A stretch of DNA of 64,000 nucleotides from a bacterium (GTDB lineage Bacteria > Zhuqueibacterota > Zhuqueibacteria > Residuimicrobiales > Residuimicrobiaceae). Numbering within the stretch: the first letter of the stretch is position 1; every line of letters begins with the position of its first letter. The notes beneath the pieces are model-generated. The model did no database searches, was not told where the DNA came from, and saw only the letters and a program-made list of their open reading frames with translations. The stretch is taken from the NCBI GenBank assembly GCA_029554865.1, contig JAKPUX010000056.1, positions 1 to 64,000 of the forward strand. Direction: 5' to 3'. The translations under genes and the position numbers were made by a program. This document shows, piece by piece, positions 23,756-57,116 of this stretch.

Positions 23756-25057
23756 TTACTTCCCTTCCAGTATCCAGGTGGCGATCTCCTGAAGCACCTT
23801 TTCCGGGAGATGGTTGAAGGAGGGCATGGGAGCACCGCCGCGTTTGACCTGAGGGGCCCTGGCCCAGGCGATCAGGTTCTGCGGATTGCCGGCATAGAGC
23901 CCCCTCACCTCGGTCAGGGGCGGGCCGACAATGGTGGTGTTTTCCGCATGACAGGCGGCGCAGTTGGCTTTGAATTCCTTCTCCCCAGAGCTTTTATAGA
24001 CCTCCCGGGTCATCCCCATGCGGGCGCGCGTCTGGGCCGCTTTGGCATCCCACATGAACGCCTCAGTCTTGGCCATCATCGCCTGGCGGTGGGGGTTCAC
24101 CGCCCGTTCGCGGTAATAGTGGCGGCCATAGGCCATAAAGAGGGCGGTGAAGGTCAGCAGGGTGAGCATGACCAGGTAGCTGCGGCCGAGAACGGCGGGG
24201 GCACGGCCCAGCTCCCTGTAAATGATCCAGGCCATTACTCCGGCGATGGTGGCGCCGGTGAGGAGGAGCAGCCAAACGGCCAGAGAGTGGCCATGCACGG
24301 GCAGGGAGAGGAGCAGGGACGGCCCGATGACAAACTGCAGCAGGGTGACGATAAAGGCGATGCGCAGAAAGAGTGCAATGACCTCTGTGCGGGTGAAATC
24401 GGGCAGCCGAGCGAGGTCATAGCCCTTGCGGCCGAACCAGCCGGCGGCGAAGAGGGCCGATATGGCGAGGGTGGCGAGGATGAAATGGAAATAGCGCAGC
24501 AGAGCGCTCGGCAGCAGCACGGCCGAGAGAAAGCCCGCCACCCGCGGCCAGTAGGCGGGCAGGACCATCAGGTTGATATTGGTGATGAAGACCATGGCGA
24601 CGGCGAGAAAGAGCACCATCGCCGCGGCGCCGACGGTCAGATGCAGGGCGCGCTGGCTGCCTCCCCAACTCTCCCAGGTGTATTTGTGCAGATAGGTGAG
24701 CAGAAAGGCGGCGCTGGCCATGATGATGATCATCAGCCAGGCAAAGCCGATGAGAACGGTCGAGGAGTAAAAATAGGTGGTATAGGCGACGTTGATGGCG
24801 AGCAGGGGCGCCACGCCCAGGACCACAGCCAGGCTCTTGCTGACCGTAACCGTGGAGGAAATCTCATAGGCGAGCCGATCGTATTTTTTGCGGCGGAGGC
24901 CGATGATCTCCAGGATCACCGCCAGGCTCTGGCCGCCGAGCATGAAATTGACGAAGAGGATGTGAATGAGGAAGAGCAGCACCAGCAGGTGCTTGACCAG
25001 CCCTTCGGGCAGGGGCAGCTGCAGAGGGAGATCATGAGGCAGAGGCTGTGGATTCAT
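23756..25057 (-). CDS. bd-like complex small subunit with C-terminal cytochrome c
   Basis: A 433-residue membrane protein with about eight to nine hydrophobic helices and one haem-c site, CAACH, near residue 370, followed by the usual Met-containing tail (GGAPMPSFNHLP). The first helix has LLFLIHILFVNFMLGGQ. The same His...LGG arrangement appears in the small subunit of the second bd-like complex and, less exactly, in the first helix of the CydA-like subunits. It lies 106 bases after a CydA-like gene and probably forms a two-subunit complex with it in the inner membrane. The start was put at the second Met, 7 bases after AGGA. No single named family was recognised. Confidence 0.7.
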   Translation of the reverse strand: MNPQPLPHDLPLQLPLPEGLVKHLLVLLFLIHILFVNFMLGGQSLAVILEIIGLRRKKYDRLAYEISSTVTVSKSLAVVLGVAPLLAINVAYTTYFYSSTVLIGFAWLMIIIMASAAFLLTYLHKYTWESWGGSQRALHLTVGAAAMVLFLAVAMVFITNINLMVLPAYWPRVAGFLSAVLLPSALLRYFHFILATLAISALFAAGWFGRKGYDLARLPDFTRTEVIALFLRIAFIVTLLQFVIGPSLLLSLPVHGHSLAVWLLLLTGATIAGVMAWIIYRELGRAPAVLGRSYLVMLTLLTFTALFMAYGRHYYRERAVNPHRQAMMAKTEAFMWDAKAAQTRARMGMTREVYKSSGEKEFKANCAACHAENTTIVGPPLTEVRGLYAGNPQNLIAWARAPQVKRGGAPMPSFNHLPEKVLQEIATWILEGK

Positions 25058-25163
25058 CGTCATATCCTGAGTGAGCGGTTAGGCAACCATCCGTTGATTT
25101 TGATCGGCACAGAAGGGGGCGCGGCGGCCGGTTTGATGGCCCAACCACCGGTTGTGAGGCCTC

Positions 25164-26573
25164 CTACTTGAGCACCGGTGCGCTGGGCAGGAGGGCGGTC
25201 TGCCCTCCCTCGGCGCGCATGGCGTAGTGCTGGTTTGCGGCCAGCCAGGCGCTCAGGGCCTTGAGTTCGGCGTCGCTGCCGGGAAATGGCGGCATGAAGA
25301 TGCGGATATTGTGCATGGTGCTGATATAGGCCGCCAGCTGCTCCTCATCCCATTTCTGTACAGGAAAGAGCTTCTGAAAGCGGGTGCGCACGCTGTTTAC
25401 CCCGCCAACGGTGTGGCAGCGGCTGCAGGTGAGCATGAAGAGCTCCCCTCCCGCCTCGAGCTTGTTCTCTTCGGTCACCTGGTGGTGGCGCACCCAGGTG
25501 GCGCGGGAGAGCACTCCCTCCTCCTTGAAGAGAGGATAGTCCTGGGCGCGCAGCCCGTTGGCGTAGAGGTAGCCCTGGATCACCCAGGGTTTGCGCACAA
25601 ATTCGCGCAGCCGTTCAAAGGTGCCGAGCAGGGTGGCCACAGCTATGAAAGGGATGACCAGGGCGGCGGCGGGCAGCCGCTTCGGTTTGACCACCCCCCA
25701 GAGGGCGGCGAGGGGGACAATGGCCGCCATGCCGAGCAGGAACCAGAGGATGGTCTGGTACCAGCGGGTAAAGTCCTGAGTCGCCAGTGCGACCGGGGCG
25801 TTGGCCTGCATGTAGACCGGGATGCGCTGCCAGTAAAAGATCGCGCCGGCGATGGCCACGGGCAGCCAGGCCAGCACCCAGAGGCTGATCGGGCGCACAG
25901 CGCGGCCGCGCACCTCCGCGGTGAGCTTTTTGAAGAAGGGGATGAGAAAGAGGAAAAACAACCCGGCGCCCAGAAAGGCCACGGCGGTGCGAAAGATGAG
26001 CTGGGGCAGATAAAGCGGGTTAAAAAAGGCGGTGAACATGCTCGATTCGGGCACCCACTCGTAGGAGAAGGGCACCCATTTACCGGTGTTCATCATAAAA
26101 CCGAGGATGCCGGTGATGACCGCCATGGTCAGCCATGAGAAGATGCTGAGAAAGAGGCCGACCCCGAGGTGCAGCCGCTTCTTCTCACCGCTCCAGGGCT
26201 TCCAGGTGAGAAAATAGATCATGATAAAGACCACCTCGAGGAAAAAGACCACCCATTCGGAAAACCAGGCCCAGAAAAAGACCCGGATCAGGCTGCCGAT
26301 GGCGTCGGGATTGACCAGGGCGGTGGTGAACCAGATGCCGACTCCGGTCATCGCACCGAGCGAGGTGGTGATGACGAAAAAGACGAAGGTGATTTTATAA
26401 GCCAGGTCGTCAAGTGCAGACCATTTTTTGCGGTGGGCGATCCATTCAAGCAGGGTCGCCATGGGGATGGCTCCGACCGCCATGGGATGGTTGATGATGA
26501 CATGCACGATGGCGGTGATGGCGATGAGCATGCGGTTGCCGATGAAATCGAGATGGAAAATGGGGAAATCCAT
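25164..26573 (-). CDS. CydA-like bd-superfamily subunit I with fused cytochrome c
   Basis: A 469-residue membrane protein related to cytochrome bd subunit I. ITAIVHVIINHPMAVG keeps the haem-ligand His of the first CydA helix, and WFSEWVVFFLEV matches the conserved Glu region. However the canonical [12 protein letters not shown] segment is replaced by AMTGVGIWFTTALV, so one quinol-oxidase Glu is absent. A C-terminal c-type domain with CSRCH (about residue 382) and a PPFPG tail is attached. It likely exchanges electrons with a c-type cytochrome rather than only quinol. The chosen ATG has GGAGACG upstream; a TTG 13 codons earlier is possible. Confidence 0.75.
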   Translation of the reverse strand: MDFPIFHLDFIGNRMLIAITAIVHVIINHPMAVGAIPMATLLEWIAHRKKWSALDDLAYKITFVFFVITTSLGAMTGVGIWFTTALVNPDAIGSLIRVFFWAWFSEWVVFFLEVVFIMIYFLTWKPWSGEKKRLHLGVGLFLSIFSWLTMAVITGILGFMMNTGKWVPFSYEWVPESSMFTAFFNPLYLPQLIFRTAVAFLGAGLFFLFLIPFFKKLTAEVRGRAVRPISLWVLAWLPVAIAGAIFYWQRIPVYMQANAPVALATQDFTRWYQTILWFLLGMAAIVPLAALWGVVKPKRLPAAALVIPFIAVATLLGTFERLREFVRKPWVIQGYLYANGLRAQDYPLFKEEGVLSRATWVRHHQVTEENKLEAGGELFMLTCSRCHTVGGVNSVRTRFQKLFPVQKWDEEQLAAYISTMHNIRIFMPPFPGSDAELKALSAWLAANQHYAMRAEGGQTALLPSAPVLK

Positions 26574-26619
26574 AACGCGCGTCTCCGTGGGGGGTACGGA
26601 TGCCTGTTTCAATCCCTAA

Positions 26620-26648: not shown

Positions 26649-26817
26649 GAACTAATCGCTTTTTTTGCCATTTTTCAGCCTAATTCTGCAAACCGGAAGG
26701 GCTATCTACAGCGCAGCGGCAGAAAAAGTCCCTGTACAATCAAGTATTCAACTCAAGGAATGCACTCCGGAATTCTGCTGTTATGAAGTGAGTACTCAAA
26801 CCAAGAGGAGTGATTTT

Positions 26818-27750
26818 ATGGCACAAACCAGGCCCGGTCTCTTCGCCCTGATGCGGGCGCCTTTTTTCTCCTCCATCCTCGCTCCCCTCTTCGCCGGCAC
26901 CTTGCTGGCAGTGATCGCTACCGGCCGCTTCTCCCCCGTCGGATTCGCCGTCGTGCTGGTGATGGGCCTTGCCCTGCACGCGGCTACCAACGTCTACAAT
27001 GATATTTTTGATACCCTGCAGGGGACCGACCGGATCAACCTCCACCGCAACGATTTCAGCGGGGGGAGCGGCTTCCTGCTCGAGCACCCCCACCTCCTGC
27101 CGGGGATGTACCGTATCGCCCGGGTCAGCCTGATCGTCGCCGCTGGCGCGGCGATGCTTCTCCTCTTCTTCACCCGCCACACGCTCTGGCCCTGGCTGGC
27201 CGGACTCTACCTGCTCGCGGCCTTTTTCAGCAAGTATTACACCGCCGCACCGGTTAAGCTGGCCTATCGCGGACTTGGCGAGCTGGCGGTATGGTTCGCC
27301 TTCGGGCCGATGGCCATCCTGGTCGCCGCCGTGAGCCAAAACACCCTCTTCCACCCCTTCATCATTGCCGCCATGCCGATCACCGGACTGAGCACCTCCT
27401 CCATCCTCTGGATGGGGCAGTTGATCGATCTGCAGGCCGACAGCAGCTCCGGCAAGCGCGGGCTGGTCGCCCGCACCGGCAGCAGGTTGGGCCGCTGGGG
27501 CTTTCTGGTCATCCATCTCCTTCTCATCGCCAACCTGATCGTCCTGGCCCTGATCGTTCTGCCTCAGGGTTGGCCCCTCCTCGCAGCCCTGCTCCCGTAC
27601 CTCCTCCTGCCCCGCACCTGGAAACAGGTTCTGCGCTATCACGACCAGCCCGGGGAGCTCAAGGCCGCAGCGGGATGGAATGTGCAGATTCATCTCGGCA
27701 TGACCGTCCTACTGGTCCTCGGCCTGTGCGCCGTACTCCTGTTGCACTAA
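26818..27750 (+). CDS. UbiA-family prenyltransferase (MenA-like)
   Basis: A 310-residue integral membrane enzyme with about eight to nine helices that would attach a prenyl chain to an aromatic acceptor. The first Asp-rich motif is NVYNDIFDTLQGTD, and the second is LIDLQADSSSGKRGL, both lying on the cytoplasmic side in this family. The pattern fits 1,4-dihydroxy-2-naphthoate prenyltransferase (menaquinone synthesis) but other quinone or tocochromanol acceptors are possible. AGAGGAG precedes the ATG. It is directly followed by a tocopherol-cyclase-like gene and surrounded by respiratory oxidase genes, which supports a quinone role. Confidence 0.82.
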   Translation: MAQTRPGLFALMRAPFFSSILAPLFAGTLLAVIATGRFSPVGFAVVLVMGLALHAATNVYNDIFDTLQGTDRINLHRNDFSGGSGFLLEHPHLLPGMYRIARVSLIVAAGAAMLLLFFTRHTLWPWLAGLYLLAAFFSKYYTAAPVKLAYRGLGELAVWFAFGPMAILVAAVSQNTLFHPFIIAAMPITGLSTSSILWMGQLIDLQADSSSGKRGLVARTGSRLGRWGFLVIHLLLIANLIVLALIVLPQGWPLLAALLPYLLLPRTWKQVLRYHDQPGELKAAAGWNVQIHLGMTVLLVLGLCAVLLLH

Positions 27751-27771
27751 TCCTTCACCCTGCGGAGAGCC

Positions 27772-28773
27772 ATGCTCACCTCCATACGAACGTTCCTCCA
27801 TCCGGAGGGTTATCACGGAAAAAAGCGCAGGCCGCCCTTTTTCGAGGGCTGGTTCTACAAATGCGTCGATGCCCGCGGTGAAAACCGCCTGGCGGTGATC
27901 CCCGGCATCGCTCTGCACCGGGAGCCGGAACAGGACCACGCCTTCATCCAGATCCTGGATGGCCGCAGCGGCCGCAGCTATTACCATCGCCTGCAGGCCA
28001 GCCAATTCAGCGCCTCGCCTCGCAGCCTTGAGCAGTGCATCGGTTCCAACCGCTTCAGCCGTGGGGGCATGGCTCTCGAGATCACAGGCGAAGAATGGCA
28101 GCTCAAGGGGGAGCTCTGTTTCGGCCCTTTCACCCCATGGCCGGTCACGCTGCGCTCCCCAGGCGCCATGGGCTGGTACGCCTGGGCCCCCTTCATGGAG
28201 TGCAATCACGGGGTAGTCAGCTTCGACCACGAACTCGGCGGGAAGGTGATCCTCAACGGTGAGGAGATCGACTTTAACGGCGGCCGCGGCTATATCGAAA
28301 AAGATTGGGGCCGTTCCTTCCCCCAAGCCTACATCTGGCTGCAGAGCAACCATTTCCCGGTCCCGGGGACCAGCTTCATGGCCTCAGTCGCCATCATCCC
28401 CTGGCTGGGCAGAGCCTTTCCGGGCTTCATCATCGGGCTGCACCACCGCCACCACCTCTACCGCCTCGCCACCTATACTGGCGCCCTTCTTGAGGCCCTC
28501 GAGGTCGGCGATGCAGAGATCCTGCTGCAGATCTGCGACCGCCAGCACCGCCTCTCCGTCCGCGCCGAGCGCTCCGCCACCGGTCTGCTGCACTCGCCCA
28601 CGCCGCAGGGCATGCAGGGCCGCATCGCCGAAACCCTCGGCGGCACCATCTCGCTGCGGCTCGACCGCATGGACACCAGAGAGACCATCCTGGAGCAGAC
28701 CGGGCTGCACGCCGGCATCGACGCCGCCGGGGATCTGCCTGCCCTGCTCGCGCTCCTGCATCGTAATTCCTAG
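27772..28773 (+). CDS. Tocopherol cyclase-like protein
   Basis: A 333-residue protein of the tocopherol cyclase (VTE1) family. Signature stretches are HPEGYHGKKRRPPFFEGWFY near the N-terminus, GWYAWAPFMECNHGVVS, and GRGYIEKDWGRSFPQAYIW followed by LQSNHF. Plant and cyanobacterial members close the chromanol ring on prenylated quinols. Homologues in non-photosynthetic bacteria have unclear roles. It begins 21 bases after the UbiA-family gene with GGAGAG as ribosome-binding site, so the two form an operon. Together they suggest modification of a prenylated quinone; the product is unknown. Confidence 0.82.
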   Translation: MLTSIRTFLHPEGYHGKKRRPPFFEGWFYKCVDARGENRLAVIPGIALHREPEQDHAFIQILDGRSGRSYYHRLQASQFSASPRSLEQCIGSNRFSRGGMALEITGEEWQLKGELCFGPFTPWPVTLRSPGAMGWYAWAPFMECNHGVVSFDHELGGKVILNGEEIDFNGGRGYIEKDWGRSFPQAYIWLQSNHFPVPGTSFMASVAIIPWLGRAFPGFIIGLHHRHHLYRLATYTGALLEALEVGDAEILLQICDRQHRLSVRAERSATGLLHSPTPQGMQGRIAETLGGTISLRLDRMDTRETILEQTGLHAGIDAAGDLPALLALLHRNS

Positions 28774-30109: not shown

Positions 30110-31456
30110 ATGGATGTTTTCCTGCTCTCGCGACTGCAGTTCGCCTTCACTATTGCCTTTCACTACATCTTTCCGCCGCTGAGCATTGGCCTGGGCGTGC
30201 TGCTGGTGATCATGGAGGCGCGCTGGCTTAAGACCAGAGATCCGCTCTATCTGGAGATGACCAAATTCTGGGCGCGTATTTTCGGGCTCATTTTCGCCCT
30301 GGGGGTTGCTTCCGGAATCGTCATGGAGTTTCAGTTCGGCACCAACTGGTCGATCTACTCCCGCTACGTCGGGGACGTCTTCGGCAGCGCCCTGGCCGCA
30401 GAGGGGATCTTTGCCTTCTTTCTTGAATCGGGCTTTCTCGCCATCCTGCTCTTCGGCTGGAACCGGGTCAAGCCCGTCACCCATTTCCTCGCCACCTGCA
30501 TGGTCGCGCTGGGGGCCCATTTCAGTGCTGTGTGGATCATCGTCGCCAACTCCTGGCAGCAGACCCCGGCGGGGCACCATATCGTCGGCTTCGGCACTGG
30601 CCTGCGCGCCGAGATTGTCGATTTCTGGCAGGTGGTATTCAATCCCTCCTCCCTGCACCGCCTCAGCCACACCCTCGCGGGAGCCTGGCAGGCCGGGGCT
30701 TTTCTCGCCCTCAGTGTCGCCGCCTATTATCTACTGCGTAATAAACACATCGCCTTCAGCAAGGCCACCCTCAGGATTGCCCTGCCCGTGGCCATGATCG
30801 CCTCACTGCTGCAGCTTCTGACCGGCCACGCCAGCGCCAGCGGCGTCGCCCGCAACCAGCCGGCCAAACTGGCCGCCTTCGAGGGACACTATCCCGCCAG
30901 CGCCCCGGCCGACATGTACCTCTTCGGCTGGGTCAATCAGGAGAAGGAGCGGGTGCAGCTCGGTCTCAGGATCCCCGGCATGCTGAGCTGGATGGTCCAT
31001 GGCGACAGCAAAGCCCCGCTGACTGGCCTGCAGGCCTTCCCGCCGGACGATCGCCCACCGGTCAATCTGGTCTTCCAAACCTACCATCTCATGGTCCTGC
31101 TCGGCATGGGTCTGATCGGACTCTCCCTGCTCGCGCTGCTGCTCCAGTTCCGGAATCGTCTCAGTGAACAGCGCTGGCTGCTCTGGATCTTCGTTTTCGC
31201 TGTGCTTGGGCCGCAAGCGGCCAACCAGCTCGGCTGGGCCTCCGCCGAGGTCGGGCGCCAGCCCTGGATCGTGCAGAACCTGCTCAGGACTCGCGACGCT
31301 TTTTCACCCAACGTTTCGGGAGGCGAGCTTCTCTTCTCCCTGGTGATGTTTTTCATCGTTTACGCGCTGCTTCTGGCCCTGTTCATCTACCTGCTCAATG
31401 ATAAAATCCAGCATGGGCCCGAAGAACGCACCAGCATGGAGGGACACCGCGCATGA
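30110..31456 (+). CDS. cydA: Cytochrome bd ubiquinol oxidase subunit I
   Basis: A 448-residue canonical CydA. It shows the first-helix His in [17 protein letters not shown], the Glu-bearing [46 protein letters not shown] with a haem His, and a short Q-loop beginning [20 protein letters not shown], which keeps the quinol-site Lys and Glu. It reduces oxygen to water with quinol electrons at the inner membrane and has high oxygen affinity. GGGAG precedes the ATG. Its TGA overlaps the cydB start (ATGA). It contrasts with the two haem-c bd-like proteins nearby, which lack the MEFQFGTNW motif. Confidence 0.96.
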
Positions 31457-32481
31457 ACCTGGCCTTCGATCTCAATACCATCTGGTTTTTCCTGGTGGGT
31501 GTTCTCTTCGCCGGCTATGCCATGCTCGACGGCTTTGATCTTGGCGTCGGCGCCCTCCACCTCTTCACCCGCGGCGACGAGAACCGCCGCATCCTGCTCA
31601 ACGCCATCGCCCCGATCTGGGACGGCAACGAGGTCTGGCTGGTCACCGGCGGGGGCGCGCTTTTCGCCGCCTTCCCCGAGGTCTACGCGACCGCTTTCTC
31701 CGGTTTTTACGTCGCCTTTATGCTTCTGCTCTTCGGGCTGATTTTCCGGGCGGTGGCTATCGAGTTCCGCAGCAAACAGCCGATGGCCTGGTGGCGACGA
31801 TTCTGGGATATAAGCTTCAGCCTCAGCAGCATCCTCTCGAGCCTGCTCATCGGGGTGGCCCTCGGCAACATGGCCTGGGGTGTCCCCCTCGACGCCCAGG
31901 GCAATTTCAACGGCTCTTTCTGGAGCCTGATTCATCCCTACAGCGTGCTGGTCGGCCTCTGCACCGTCGCCCTCTTCACCATGCACGGCTCGATCTACCT
32001 GGTGTTGAAAACCGAAGGGGCGCTGCAGCAGCAGGTCCGCGAGTGGAGCCGGTCGACCATCATCTCCTTTGTCCTTTTTTATATCACCGTCACCATGTTC
32101 ACCCTGCTCTACGTGCCGCACATGACCGATACCATCCGCGCCAATCCCTGGCTCTTCCTGGTCGCACTGGTCAACATGCTCGCCATCGCCAATATCCCGC
32201 GCGAGATTTTTCACGGCCGTGAGATGCGCGCCTTTCTGTCGAGCTGCGCGGCGGTGATCGCCCTGCTCCTGCTCTTCGGCATCGGCACCTATCCGAACCT
32301 GGTCTATTCCAACCCCCAACCCGCCAACAGCCTGACTATCTACAACGCCGCCTCCTCGCGAAAGACCCTGCAGATCATGCTCATCATCGCCCTCTGCGGG
32401 GTGCCAATGGTGCTCGCCTATACCGGCAGCATCTACTGGATCTTCCGCGGCAAGGTCAAACTCGACGCACACAGTTATTAG
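31453..32481 (+). CDS. cydB: Cytochrome bd ubiquinol oxidase subunit II
   Basis: A 342-residue membrane subunit with about eight to nine helices that pairs with CydA. Hallmarks are GYAMLDGFDLGVGALHLF and IAPIWDGNEVWLVTGGGALFAAFPEVYA, including the conserved acidic residue used for proton uptake. The chain length is normal for the family. It overlaps cydA by four bases, so the two are translated together. No small CydX-type gene was evident right after it. Confidence 0.96.
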   Translation: MNLAFDLNTIWFFLVGVLFAGYAMLDGFDLGVGALHLFTRGDENRRILLNAIAPIWDGNEVWLVTGGGALFAAFPEVYATAFSGFYVAFMLLLFGLIFRAVAIEFRSKQPMAWWRRFWDISFSLSSILSSLLIGVALGNMAWGVPLDAQGNFNGSFWSLIHPYSVLVGLCTVALFTMHGSIYLVLKTEGALQQQVREWSRSTIISFVLFYITVTMFTLLYVPHMTDTIRANPWLFLVALVNMLAIANIPREIFHGREMRAFLSSCAAVIALLLLFGIGTYPNLVYSNPQPANSLTIYNAASSRKTLQIMLIIALCGVPMVLAYTGSIYWIFRGKVKLDAHSY

Positions 32482-33843: not shown

Positions 33844-36498
33844 TTAAAAATCAAAGGGATTCCGGACCATGCCTAGCATGTTCTCGTGGTGAACCGGATC
33901 GGTCATCACTTTTTTATGGCAGACCGCACAGTTCTTGTTGGCGCCGATGGCATAGGAGCTCCCCGTGTACTGCCGCGGCTGGATATTGTCACGCCAGAGC
34001 ACGAAGGGGTTATCGGCCGGATAGAGGGCGTGGGTGGCACTGTGACAGGCCTCGCAGCGGATGCCGGCGTTGTCGGTGCGCACGCGGAAGAGGCCGGTGA
34101 ATCCGGGCGTCCATTTGTTGAAACTGACGATATCCTCCGGGATGTTAAAACCGGCATGGCAGTTGAGGCAGTCGGGTTCCTGCAGCCAGGGGGTGCGTGG
34201 ATGGACCTCGCTGGCGCTGGCGACCTGGTCCGATTTCAGATGGCGGACCAGCCGTGCTGCCCCGGGCTTGGCCTCTTCGCCGCGCAGCAGGGCCATGGCA
34301 TGCTCCTCGAGGCTGCCGTGGCACTCGCTGCAGGTGATGCCGATCTCCTTGTGAAAATCGCGTGCGCAGCGGGTGGCGCCGTCGGGCCTGGCCGGATGGC
34401 AGGCGGCACAGGCGGCCGCTCCCTCCAGATGCATATAATTGGCATGCCAGCCATGCATGGCGGCCGAGAAATTGAGGCGGAGGCTGTCGCCTTTGGCGCC
34501 GACCGCCGGATCGGCGTGGCAGCTCTGGCAGAGGGCCGGCTTGCCCTGTTTTGCCTGTTCCAAAAGGGTGGTGCCGCTGTTGCGGTCGTGGGCGGCAAGG
34601 ATGTTGACAGCGGTCTCGTCGCTCACCCCGGCGACGCCCCGCTTCCAGGTCCCGCCGTGGCAGGTGCGGCAGCCCATCTCCGATGAGACCGGCGCCACCA
34701 CCCGGGTGGAGGCGAGCAGGCGGCCGCCGACTTTCTCCCTGGCTTCCACCGTGAAGGTGGGGAAGGCGTTGAAGGCGCCGTCGTCGCTGTAGGGGCCGAC
34801 CGGGATCATCTCGGCGGCAAAGCTGGCGAAATCGGCCTTGTACTCCATCTCGCCCGATAGCCCCTTGCCCGCCAGGCCGATATTCTCCGGCAGGTCGACG
34901 CCGAAATTGGCCTTGACATGTTTCCAGAAAGGCATCTGGCCGGCCGGATTCTCAAAGCCCTCCTCCACCTTGTAGCTCAGGGTCACCCCGTCTGATATCA
35001 GGGCCGGAAGGGCGCCGCGGCGGATGAGCTGGGCATGCAGGGTGTTGGCCGGGGGCAGGATGACAAACCAGGCGTCGCAGTCGGTCATGCAGTGCATCCC
35101 CAGGTCATTCCAGGCCAGCAAGAGATAGTCATCCTTGCGGCTGTCGAAGGGGGGAATCTTTTCGGCTTTACGGGCAGCAGGAGCGCTGGCGGTGGTGGTG
35201 GCCGCCTCAGGGGCCTTGCCATGGAGCCCCTGCACGATCCAGGCCGCCAGGGCCTCCCGTTCTGCGGGAGTCCCGGCCACCGGAGGCATGTAGCTGTTGA
35301 TCCGGCCCTGGCCATGGAGAAAGGCAAGCATCCCCTCCTGCGGAAACATACCAGTGCGGCTGAGGATGTCGTTGCGCACCCCGCCGACGGTATGGCAGGG
35401 CAGGCATTGGATATCGAAGAGATCCTTGCCCGCCTGCAGCTGGTTGTCGGGTGTGATCTCCTTGTGCTGCGTCCAGCGGGCATTCGGCAGCACCCCCTCC
35501 TCATTGAGGCGGGCGCCATCCGCGGCATGGATCGAGGTGCTGTACATGTAGCCGTGGATAACCCAGGGCTTGCGGGCGATCTCGCGCAGGTACTCGAACC
35601 CGCCGTAAAAGCCCAGTCCCGCCAGCACCAGAAGCACGGCCAGCACCTGCTGCAACCCGCGCGGGGATCTGAGCAGATAGTAGAGGGCGAGGAGGAAAAT
35701 CGCCGCTGCAGCCGCCAGGGCGATCAGAATGAAGGGCTCGCTCTGGGGATTGAGCCCAAAGGCCACCTCCCGTGTTGCGGCGGGAATGCTCATGTAATAC
35801 CAGTAGCCGGTCGCCGCCATGATTGGAAGGGCCAACAGCAGCCACTTGCTGCAGTAGCGCAGAATCTGGTCGCGGGAAAAACCGTTGGGTATGCGCACTG
35901 CTGTAAAAATGCCGAAAAGTCCCGCGATCATCACCGCCACCCCGGTGCGGAAGCAGGTGGAGGCGAAGTAGGTGGGATTGAGGAAGCCATGCCAGAAGCT
36001 GCCGGTCTGCAGCCATTTGCCCGGGGTGAGCATAAAGGCAAGGATGCCGTTGATGACGACCAGGCTGAGCCAGGCGAAGAGGGCATAGAGAAAGGCGATA
36101 TTGAGGCGAGGCCTCTTGTCCAGTTTGCTGAAATTGTAATGATAGATGAGCAGGGCGGTGATCTCGCCGAGGAAGAAAACCCACTCGATCGCCCAGCCGA
36201 AGACGAAGGAATGGATCAGGGCGGAGGTGGCCGCAGGCTGGACCAGGGCGATGACGAACCAGATGCCCACGCCGGTAATGCCGCCGAAGACCATGGTCAG
36301 AAGCAGGAAAAACCAGGTGTACCGGCGCACATAGACGTGGATCTCGGGATTGTTCTCGCGGAATCCCTTCCAGTCCATCAGCCAGATGAAGATGCCGCCG
36401 CCGACGGCGAGATGGGAAATATAGGCATGCAGCACGGCGATGAGGGCGATCATCGAACTCCCGCCGAACCAGGTCAGCTCCCAGATTGGATAGTTCAT
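33844..36498 (-). CDS. CydA-like subunit fused to an octahaem cytochrome c region
   Basis: An 884-residue fusion. Residues 1-340 are a CydA-like membrane part (MIALIAVLHAYISHLAVGGG with the haem His, GITGVGIWFVIALV in place of the canonical [24 protein letters not shown]). A monohaem domain follows (CLPCH, about residue 365), then an Ala/Thr linker and a globular extracytoplasmic domain. The C-terminal part carries seven more haem-c sites: CRTCH, CQSCH, CAACH, CSECH, CLNCH, CEACH and CAVCH, with several extra His as possible distal ligands. Its ATG overlaps the stop of the partner gene. It probably links membrane electron flow to periplasmic cytochromes. Direction and terminal acceptor are unknown. 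Confidence 0.82.
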   Translation of the reverse strand: MNYPIWELTWFGGSSMIALIAVLHAYISHLAVGGGIFIWLMDWKGFRENNPEIHVYVRRYTWFFLLLTMVFGGITGVGIWFVIALVQPAATSALIHSFVFGWAIEWVFFLGEITALLIYHYNFSKLDKRPRLNIAFLYALFAWLSLVVINGILAFMLTPGKWLQTGSFWHGFLNPTYFASTCFRTGVAVMIAGLFGIFTAVRIPNGFSRDQILRYCSKWLLLALPIMAATGYWYYMSIPAATREVAFGLNPQSEPFILIALAAAAAIFLLALYYLLRSPRGLQQVLAVLLVLAGLGFYGGFEYLREIARKPWVIHGYMYSTSIHAADGARLNEEGVLPNARWTQHKEITPDNQLQAGKDLFDIQCLPCHTVGGVRNDILSRTGMFPQEGMLAFLHGQGRINSYMPPVAGTPAEREALAAWIVQGLHGKAPEAATTTASAPAARKAEKIPPFDSRKDDYLLLAWNDLGMHCMTDCDAWFVILPPANTLHAQLIRRGALPALISDGVTLSYKVEEGFENPAGQMPFWKHVKANFGVDLPENIGLAGKGLSGEMEYKADFASFAAEMIPVGPYSDDGAFNAFPTFTVEAREKVGGRLLASTRVVAPVSSEMGCRTCHGGTWKRGVAGVSDETAVNILAAHDRNSGTTLLEQAKQGKPALCQSCHADPAVGAKGDSLRLNFSAAMHGWHANYMHLEGAAACAACHPARPDGATRCARDFHKEIGITCSECHGSLEEHAMALLRGEEAKPGAARLVRHLKSDQVASASEVHPRTPWLQEPDCLNCHAGFNIPEDIVSFNKWTPGFTGLFRVRTDNAGIRCEACHSATHALYPADNPFVLWRDNIQPRQYTGSSYAIGANKNCAVCHKKVMTDPVHHENMLGMVRNPFDF

Positions 36499-37556
36499 TC
36501 GCTTTCCCTCCCCTCACCCGCAGAGATCATCGTGCGCACCATATACCATACCGCCGCCAGACCGATGAGAAGGATGATGACGAAGAGGATGAGCAAGTCA
36601 TACTGCGGCTTGAGAGTCAGCTCCGAAACCTTGAAAAAGCGGCCGATATAGAGATCGCGCAGGGCCAGGCGGTTGAGGACCATAACCAGGGTAAGGGCGA
36701 TGAGATGCCAGAAAGTGGGCCAAAATTTTCCCAGAAAGGCCAGCACGAGGGCGCCGATGGCAAGGATGATCCCCACAATCAGGATGAGAGTGTAGAGGAG
36801 ATTCCCGCCCATGAAAGCGAGCATAAAGTCGCGCGGCAGGGCAATGAGAAACCAGATCCCCACCGCCACCTGCACGCTGGTGGCAATGGCGAAGATGCGC
36901 AGCCCGTTCCTGACCTCCTCCCCGCTGCCGGGCACCCCCTTGCGGGCGCGGATCTGCCAGACCAGGCTGCTGAAGAGCCCGGCGACCGCCACGGAGGCGA
37001 TGACGAAGTGGAGGTAGCGCGGCCAGAGGGCCGGATCCGAGAGATTGAGAATGGTGCCGCTGCGGTTGGTGAAATAGGCGGACCATTTTTCCGGCTGCAG
37101 CATCAGGGTCATATTGTTTGAGTAAATGAAAGTGATATAGAGGAAAATAAGCGCGGCCAGGCCAATAGCCGTCCTGCCGAGCCAGTTCACGGCGCTGCGG
37201 GCGTGGATGTAGGTGCCGTAATAGGCGATGATCAGCAGGGGAATGACCAGCAGCCAGTAGAGCGCCATCAGCACCGAACTGCTGTAGATGAGGTGGCCGT
37301 AGAGGACCTGCAGAAAGAGCAGCGGGGCAACACCGAGGGTGACCCCGATCGCCAGGGTCGAGGGGATTTTTTTATAGATTGCCGAGGCTGCACCGTTTTC
37401 GCGGGGAGCTTTGCTGAAAAAGGCAAGAAGCGAACCGCCAAGGACCACATTGATGAAGAGGATATGGAGCATGAAAAGCAGGACCCCGAGGACTTCAAAA
37501 ACCGGCCATGGCGCAGGAATGGCCTCGAGTGTGGGAATGAGAGGTATGCCATCCAT
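36495..37556 (-). CDS. Membrane partner subunit of the octahaem bd-like complex
   Basis: A 353-residue protein with about nine hydrophobic helices and no haem-c motif. VLLFMLHILFINVVLGGSLLA in its first helix parallels the corresponding segment of the 433-residue subunit of the first bd-like complex, and TLGVAPLLFLQVLYGHLIYSS parallels LGVAPLLAINVAYTTYFYSS there. So the two complexes share both subunit types. AGAGGAGG precedes the ATG. It overlaps the downstream CydA-like gene by four bases (ATGA). The role is inferred as subunit II or a CydA-like second half. Confidence 0.7.
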   Translation of the reverse strand: MDGIPLIPTLEAIPAPWPVFEVLGVLLFMLHILFINVVLGGSLLAFFSKAPRENGAASAIYKKIPSTLAIGVTLGVAPLLFLQVLYGHLIYSSSVLMALYWLLVIPLLIIAYYGTYIHARSAVNWLGRTAIGLAALIFLYITFIYSNNMTLMLQPEKWSAYFTNRSGTILNLSDPALWPRYLHFVIASVAVAGLFSSLVWQIRARKGVPGSGEEVRNGLRIFAIATSVQVAVGIWFLIALPRDFMLAFMGGNLLYTLILIVGIILAIGALVLAFLGKFWPTFWHLIALTLVMVLNRLALRDLYIGRFFKVSELTLKPQYDLLILFVIILLIGLAAVWYMVRTMISAGEGRESE

Positions 37557-50802: not shown

Positions 50803-56991
<6,189 letters not shown>

Positions 56992-57116
56992 GTGCAGCAT
57001 TCCTCTGTTCGGAAAATTCAAGCCGGGTGAACGGCGGCAGGTGCTAAAAAAAAGGCGCCGCCCGGAGTGCGAGCGGCAACCGAATGGGCTGAATATTAAA
57101 ACGTCCGAAGGGGCGT

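What the first reader, a model, noticed from the sequence alone, without database searches (positions are those of the whole stretch)
33844..37556. CydA-like oxidase subunit fused to an eight-haem cytochrome c region
The CydA-like membrane part keeps the haem His but replaces the canonical MEFQFGTNW quinol-oxidase segment, and is joined to a monohaem domain and seven further CXXCH sites. Haem-c-bearing branches of the bd superfamily are recognised, but an octahaem fusion of this size is unusual. The complex may link quinone to an external acceptor or accept electrons from periplasmic cytochromes.
Basis: partly seen in the sequence, partly recalled or inferred. Interest (0 to 1): 0.68.

Follow-up and report, generated by a model that had tools for sequence, protein, structure and literature searches.

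The report
Eight-haem cytochrome-linked bd-type oxidase
Two adjacent genes encode an uncharacterised but widespread membrane enzyme of the cytochrome bd kind that keeps the oxygen-reacting centre, has lost the quinone-feeding parts, and carries a built-in chain of eight c-type haems, so it probably burns oxygen with electrons taken from periplasmic cytochromes instead of from quinones.

Summary
The fusion is real: 33844-36498 (-) encodes one 884-aa protein with a CydA-like membrane core, a c6-like monohaem domain, a beta-sandwich and seven more CXXCH sites. The rest of the reported interval (36495-37556) is a separate overlapping gene for a second bd-fold subunit. The pair is no oddity: 55 of 58 loci not cut by a contig end keep it as one reading frame, mostly with the partner gene upstream, in KSB1, Calditrichota, Bacteroidota, Ignavibacteria, Desulfobacterota and others, and in one cultured strain (Desulfogranum japonicum). 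All 52 aligned relatives have exactly eight CXXCH. The residues of the oxygen site match canonical CydA. The Q-loop is gone, the haem b558 His is replaced in all sampled relatives and the Met in nearly all, so a quinol oxidase is unlikely. A cytochrome c-fed oxygen reductase, near the published OR-C branch of the bd superfamily, is the best reading; OR-C placement could not be tested against the published models. The octahaem clade is sister to one- to four-haem relatives; in Desulfobulbales the seven-haem module seems to have been lost again. I found no description in the papers searched. Electron donor, direction and substrate are inferred, not shown.

The parts
33844..36498 (-). CydA-like octahaem subunit, 884 aa (P0001)
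   Evidence: single ORF; Foldseek hits only bd-oxidase chains, best 5doq_A E 1.3e-7; 53-sequence alignment A2
35563..36498 (-). membrane core, residues 1-312, eight predicted TM helices; H24, E105, E112, E306, R309 conserved with canonical CydA
   Evidence: model pLDDT 91.4; residue table; alignment to 5doq_A
35224..35466 (-). c6-like monohaem domain, residues 345-425, C365-x-x-C368-H369 with candidate Met ligand M404
   Evidence: Pfam PF13442; cytochrome c6 matches in PDB
34693..35136 (-). beta-sandwich domain with NDLGMHC motif, residues 455-602
   Evidence: secondary structure of the model; no Pfam match in this stretch
33847..34683 (-). seven-haem module, residues 606-884, CXXCH at 610, 657, 697, 723, 777, 815, 857
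   Evidence: all 52 full-length relatives have 8 CXXCH in all; conserved H637, H682, H685, H716, H733, H823, H870, H871; dN/dS 0.076
36495..37556 (-). partner subunit, 353 aa (P0002), bd fold, CydA-prime-like, invariant H31 aligned with H24 of P0001
   Evidence: model pLDDT 92.7; Foldseek top hits all bd chains, E about 1e-3; hhalign to A2 prob 96.6, E 6.6e-10; adjacent in most loci where the upstream side is held

Best explanation
A two-subunit oxygen reductase of the cytochrome bd superfamily, fed by cytochrome c and not by quinol. The 884-aa subunit holds the oxygen-reacting haem pair in its membrane core; its C-terminus, on the periplasmic side, carries a c6-like haem and then a seven-haem wire. 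Electrons from periplasmic or outer-membrane multihaem cytochromes enter the seven-haem module, pass to the monohaem domain beside the membrane, and go on to the b595/d-type haem pair, where O2 is reduced to water. The 353-aa partner is a paralogous bd-fold subunit that takes the place of CydB. Shown: gene structure, architecture, conserved ligands, loss of Q-loop and b558 ligands, conservation of the pair. Inferred: O2 as substrate, direction of flow, identity of the donor, haem type at the active site, and heterodimer formation.
For: O2-site residues equal canonical CydA in all sampled relatives: H24, E105, E112, E306, R309, P311, with the Glu-Glu spacing of the Geobacillus enzyme. The b558 His is Phe (occasionally Tyr) in all sampled octahaem relatives and the b558 Met is kept in only one; the Q-loop is absent in all; PMC6853902 gives His186/Met393 as b558 ligands and Glu99/Glu445 as axial ligands at d and b595. 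Both subunits have the bd fold. Canonical cydAB lies within 10 kb in this window and in three of 65 other loci (L071, L092, L096), and about 4 kb away in three Desulfobulbales genomes. The own genome has no haem-copper oxidase; 21 of 30 genomes carrying the family have none, while 28 of 30 have CydB, so quinol oxidation is already covered. Stand-alone relatives of the seven-haem module are exported: one has a T9SS sorting tail, one a borderline MtrC/MtrF-like match.
Against: No biochemistry. bd-type centres also react with NO and H2O2, so O2 is not proven. No donor cytochrome is conserved next to the genes. Two gained residues (E302, invariant, and H29, nearly so) are unexplained and could mean altered haem ligation or chemistry.
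Confidence: 0.62

Rival explanations
1. The complex runs the other way: a quinol dehydrogenase that passes electrons from the membrane pool through eight haems to external acceptors (metals, partner cells), like a bd-derived CbcL-type gate.
For: Multihaem module; relatives of the module are exported; many hosts are anaerobes; the cable bacteria papers propose such a role for their own CydA homologue.
Against: No Q-loop and no b558 His; the oxygen-site Glu and His are kept instead.
Confidence: 0.13
2. Same chemistry, but the role is removal of O2 in anaerobes rather than respiration.
For: Rubrerythrin genes within 10 kb in four of 65 loci; a ferritin gene 66 bases downstream in the window; frequent in Desulfobulbales.
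Against: The ferritin is not found beside the relatives, including the closest one; an eight-haem intake seems costly for pure scavenging.
Confidence: 0.15
3. The active site reduces another small molecule (NO, nitrite, peroxide) with electrons from cytochromes.
For: bd oxidases handle NO and peroxide; the gained residues E302 and H29 near the site could change the substrate.
Against: The whole canonical ligand set for O2 is kept; the seven further haems look bis-His and give no free catalytic site.
Confidence: 0.08
4. Chance fusion or decayed gene in one draft genome.
For: The window comes from a fragmented draft assembly (408 contigs).
Against: Intact in 55 of 58 uncut loci from many phyla; dN/dS 0.122 against the 77% relative.
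Confidence: 0.01

Closest known systems
Cytochrome bd OR-C family (Murali, Gennis and Hemp 2021, as cited in PMC10839748 and PMC13189123)
   Same: bd-superfamily core without quinol site; from my own knowledge, a C-terminal haem c domain
   Different: Seven further haems and a beta-sandwich fused behind the monohaem domain; placement against the published OR-C models not tested because neither paper nor models are held
OR-N type CydAA' oxidases of Nitrospira and Nitrospina (PMC12342949, PMC10839748, PMC3578206)
   Same: two CydA-like subunits, no quinol site, cytochrome c proposed as donor
   Different: Here the large subunit carries eight haem c
Canonical cytochrome bd quinol oxidase CydAB (same window, 30110-32481)
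   Same: fold and oxygen-site residues
   Different: no Q-loop, no b558 ligands, no CydB family match, eight haem c added
Solo CydA homologue of cable bacteria (found here in G195, G177 and kin)
   Same: bd core plus C-terminal monohaem domain
   Different: no seven-haem module, no partner gene, keeps the b558 His and Met, has Leu in place of E112

Membership tests
cytochrome bd superfamily | bd fold of subunit I | tested here: met
   the 20 best Foldseek matches are all bd-oxidase chains
cytochrome bd superfamily | ligands of the oxygen-reacting haem pair (His19, Glu99, Glu445 in E. coli numbering) | tested here: met
   H24, E105, E306 aligned with canonical CydA in all sampled relatives
canonical bd quinol oxidase (qOR) | Q-loop with conserved Lys and Glu | tested here: not met
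   gap in all octahaem rows
canonical bd quinol oxidase (qOR) | b558 ligands His186 and Met393 | tested here: not met
   Phe and Ala in P0001; His lost in all sampled relatives, Met kept in one (L051)
canonical bd quinol oxidase (qOR) | CydB partner (PF02322) | tested here: not met
   P0002 has no CydB match by Pfam; by profile it aligns with the CydA-like core
OR-C family | no quinol site plus covalently bound haem c at the C-terminus (definition partly from memory) | tested here: met
   (haem attachment sites, not haem itself, were seen)
OR-C family | falls in the published OR-C clade or hits the OR-C profile | not testable with these tools
   paper and HMM profiles not held
OR-N CydAA' | two CydA-like subunits | tested here: met
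   hhalign P0001 family to P0002 family, E 6.6e-10; physical association not shown
OR-N CydAA' | no haem c in CydA | tested here: not met
   eight CXXCH
known multihaem enzymes (NrfA, HAO, octahaem tetrathionate reductase) | same fold in the C-terminal module | tested here: inconclusive
   no match among the best 50 fold hits of the whole-chain model; weak sequence match to 1sp3, E 0.08; module not searched alone by fold

The most novel reading that the evidence does not exclude
A separate respiratory route: an inner-membrane oxygen reductase hard-wired to the extracellular or periplasmic multihaem cytochrome network, so that cells can pass electrons from outside sources (minerals, partner cells, sulfide-oxidising cytochromes) straight to O2 without the quinone pool.
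Probability: 0.3. Interest if true: 0.78.

Novelty: new variant of a known kind. Interest (0 to 1): 0.6.

Why it matters
If right, a large group of supposed anaerobes (Desulfobulbales, KSB1, Calditrichota, Bacteroidota) owns an oxygen reductase that annotation misses: Pfam PF01654 scores it just under its cut-off (26.1 against 26.2) and the partner has no family. It would tie bd-type oxygen chemistry to multihaem cytochrome wiring, give a second way to reduce O2 besides quinol oxidation in genomes without haem-copper oxidases, and a cultured strain (Desulfogranum japonicum DSM 18378) makes it testable. The same comparison shows that the 'CydA homologue' of cable bacteria is a haem c-bearing relative with b558 ligands kept, which bears on how those organisms move electrons.

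Tried and rejected
One-gene reading of the whole interval: rejected, two genes. Quinol oxidase: rejected on ligands. Known octahaem enzymes: only weak sequence match, no fold match. Split-fusion test: 55 of 58 uncut loci are a single frame; three are interrupted (L066 by an in-frame stop, L102 and L107 by frame changes), as are a few Desulfobulbales genomes; taken as assembly errors or decay, not checked. Monohaem to tetrahaem relatives in Desulfobulbales as a split form: 14 of 16 genomes searched have no separate module. Cable bacteria as carriers of the octahaem form: looked for, not found. Ferritin downstream as a functional partner: not conserved. Conserved neighbours: none beyond the partner in most loci. 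Sequence search of the partner profile in PDB: nothing. Murali 2021 not held.

Full report
What is there. The interval holds two genes on the minus strand. 36495-37556 encodes 353 aa and overlaps by four bases the start of 33844-36498, which encodes 884 aa. The 884-aa protein has eight CXXCH; residue shuffles give 0.016 on average and never more than 2 in 5000. Pfam finds a cbb3-subunit-III-type monohaem domain at 353-421, cytochrome c7/c3-type matches from 606 on, and the bd subunit I family just under its cut-off.

Structure. AlphaFold2 models with the families' own alignments are confident (884 aa: pLDDT 91.4, pTM 0.87; 353 aa: 92.7 and 0.90). In the PDB the best 20 fold matches of the large subunit are all bd-oxidase chains (5doq_A, E 1.3e-7), and so are the 16 best of the small subunit, although at E of 1e-3 or weaker. 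Profile comparison joins the two subunits over 273 columns (prob 96.6, E 6.6e-10), so the small one is a CydA-like paralogue and its invariant His31 lines up with His24. Order in the large subunit: eight TM helices (1-312), c6-like haem domain (345-425), beta-sandwich (455-602), seven haems (606-884). Haem c attachment happens on the periplasmic side, and the Lys/Arg in the loops between helices 1-2, 3-4, 5-6 and 7-8 agree with that orientation (read by eye from the sequence).

Active site. Against canonical CydA from the same window and three other loci, His24, Glu105, Glu112, Glu306, Arg309 and Pro311 are kept in every sampled octahaem relative. The b558 His is Phe (Tyr in L092), the b558 Met is replaced in all but one (L051), and the Q-loop is absent. 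PMC6853902 names His186/Met393 as b558 ligands and Glu99/Glu445 as axial ligands of haems d and b595 in E. coli. Residues gained are His29 (Gln in some) and Glu302; their role is unknown. In the seven-haem module eight His besides those of CXXCH are invariant or nearly so (637, 682, 685, 716, 733, 823, 870, 871), enough for bis-His ligation, and the monohaem domain has invariant Met404. Selection is strongest on the module: dN/dS 0.076 against 0.112 for the membrane core, versus the 77% relative; dS is above 1, so values are rough.

Distribution. A scan of named genomes returned 65 loci (L045-L109) matching across the fusion or up to a contig end; 55 hold all eight motifs in one ORF, seven are cut by contig ends, three have broken frames. 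Record titles name Calditrichaceae, KSB1, Bacteroidetes, Ignavibacteria, Kapabacteria, Verrucomicrobia, Glassbacteria, Gemmatimonadales, Zixiibacteriota, Thermodesulfovibrio, Myxococcales and many Desulfobacterota; nearly all are MAGs, so single assignments may be wrong. All 52 aligned full-length relatives have exactly eight CXXCH. In the order Desulfobulbales 140 of 243 genomes have a relative at E<=1e-20, about 75 of them the octahaem form by my count of the listing.

Evolution. In a tree of the CydA-like and monohaem parts, octahaem proteins and a set of monohaem Desulfobulbales proteins with the same gene order (partner upstream) form one clade (100/100 in the focused tree), sister to two- to four-haem forms whose partner gene lies downstream. 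The monohaem forms sit inside the octahaem ones, and holding the octahaem rows together is rejected (AU p 0.0155), which fits loss of the module; independent gain is not excluded. Fourteen of 16 genomes with one- to four-haem forms carry no separate module. The module also exists alone: a secreted-type 407-aa protein in D. japonicum (L169) and one with a type IX secretion tail in a genome of the window's own order (L038).

Function. The kept oxygen site, missing quinol site and fused haems point to a cytochrome c-fed oxygen reductase. Context agrees: canonical cydAB lies beside the pair in the window, in L071, L092 and L096 (3 of 65 loci over 787 kb of flank, where I would expect about 0.2 for one copy per 3.5 Mb), and about 4 kb away in three Desulfobulbales genomes; rubrerythrin genes occur in four loci. 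These counts are small and related genomes are not independent. The own genome (94% complete) has no haem-copper oxidase. No donor gene is conserved nearby.

Known or new. Papers held describe qOR, OR-C and OR-N families of the bd superfamily. Searches for octahaem or multihaem CydA fusions found no description; the defining 2021 paper is not held and could mention it. I therefore call it a new variant of a known kind.

Noticed in passing
23756-25063 and 25164-26612 (-): A second cytochrome c-type bd pair: a 482-aa CydA-like protein with one CXXCH and the same oxygen-site residues, and a 435-aa bd-like partner that also ends in a monohaem domain. With cydAB at 30110-32481 this makes three bd-superfamily systems within 14 kb.
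   Followed up: partly
L175-L185 (G195, G177 and kin, taken as cable bacteria from the 16S primer site ELF645wF in G195, G177, G252): The lone 'CydA homologue' of cable bacteria ends in a haem c domain, keeps the b558 His and Met, lacks the Q-loop and has Leu in place of the second TM3 Glu; no partner gene lies beside it in the five loci examined.
   Followed up: partly
L169:5093-6316, L038:2191-3693: Stand-alone exported multihaem proteins built on the same beta-sandwich (NDLGMHC) and haem module; one has a T9SS sorting tail.
   Followed up: partly
L111:10001-13729, L113:5378-9090: Tandem pairs of monohaem CydA-like genes followed by the partner gene, so three bd-fold subunits in a row.
   Followed up: no
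26665-28773 (+): UbiA-type prenyltransferase followed by a tocopherol-cyclase family gene, an odd pair in a bacterium of this kind.
   Followed up: no
50803-57021 (-): A 2072-aa open reading frame, not examined.
   Followed up: no
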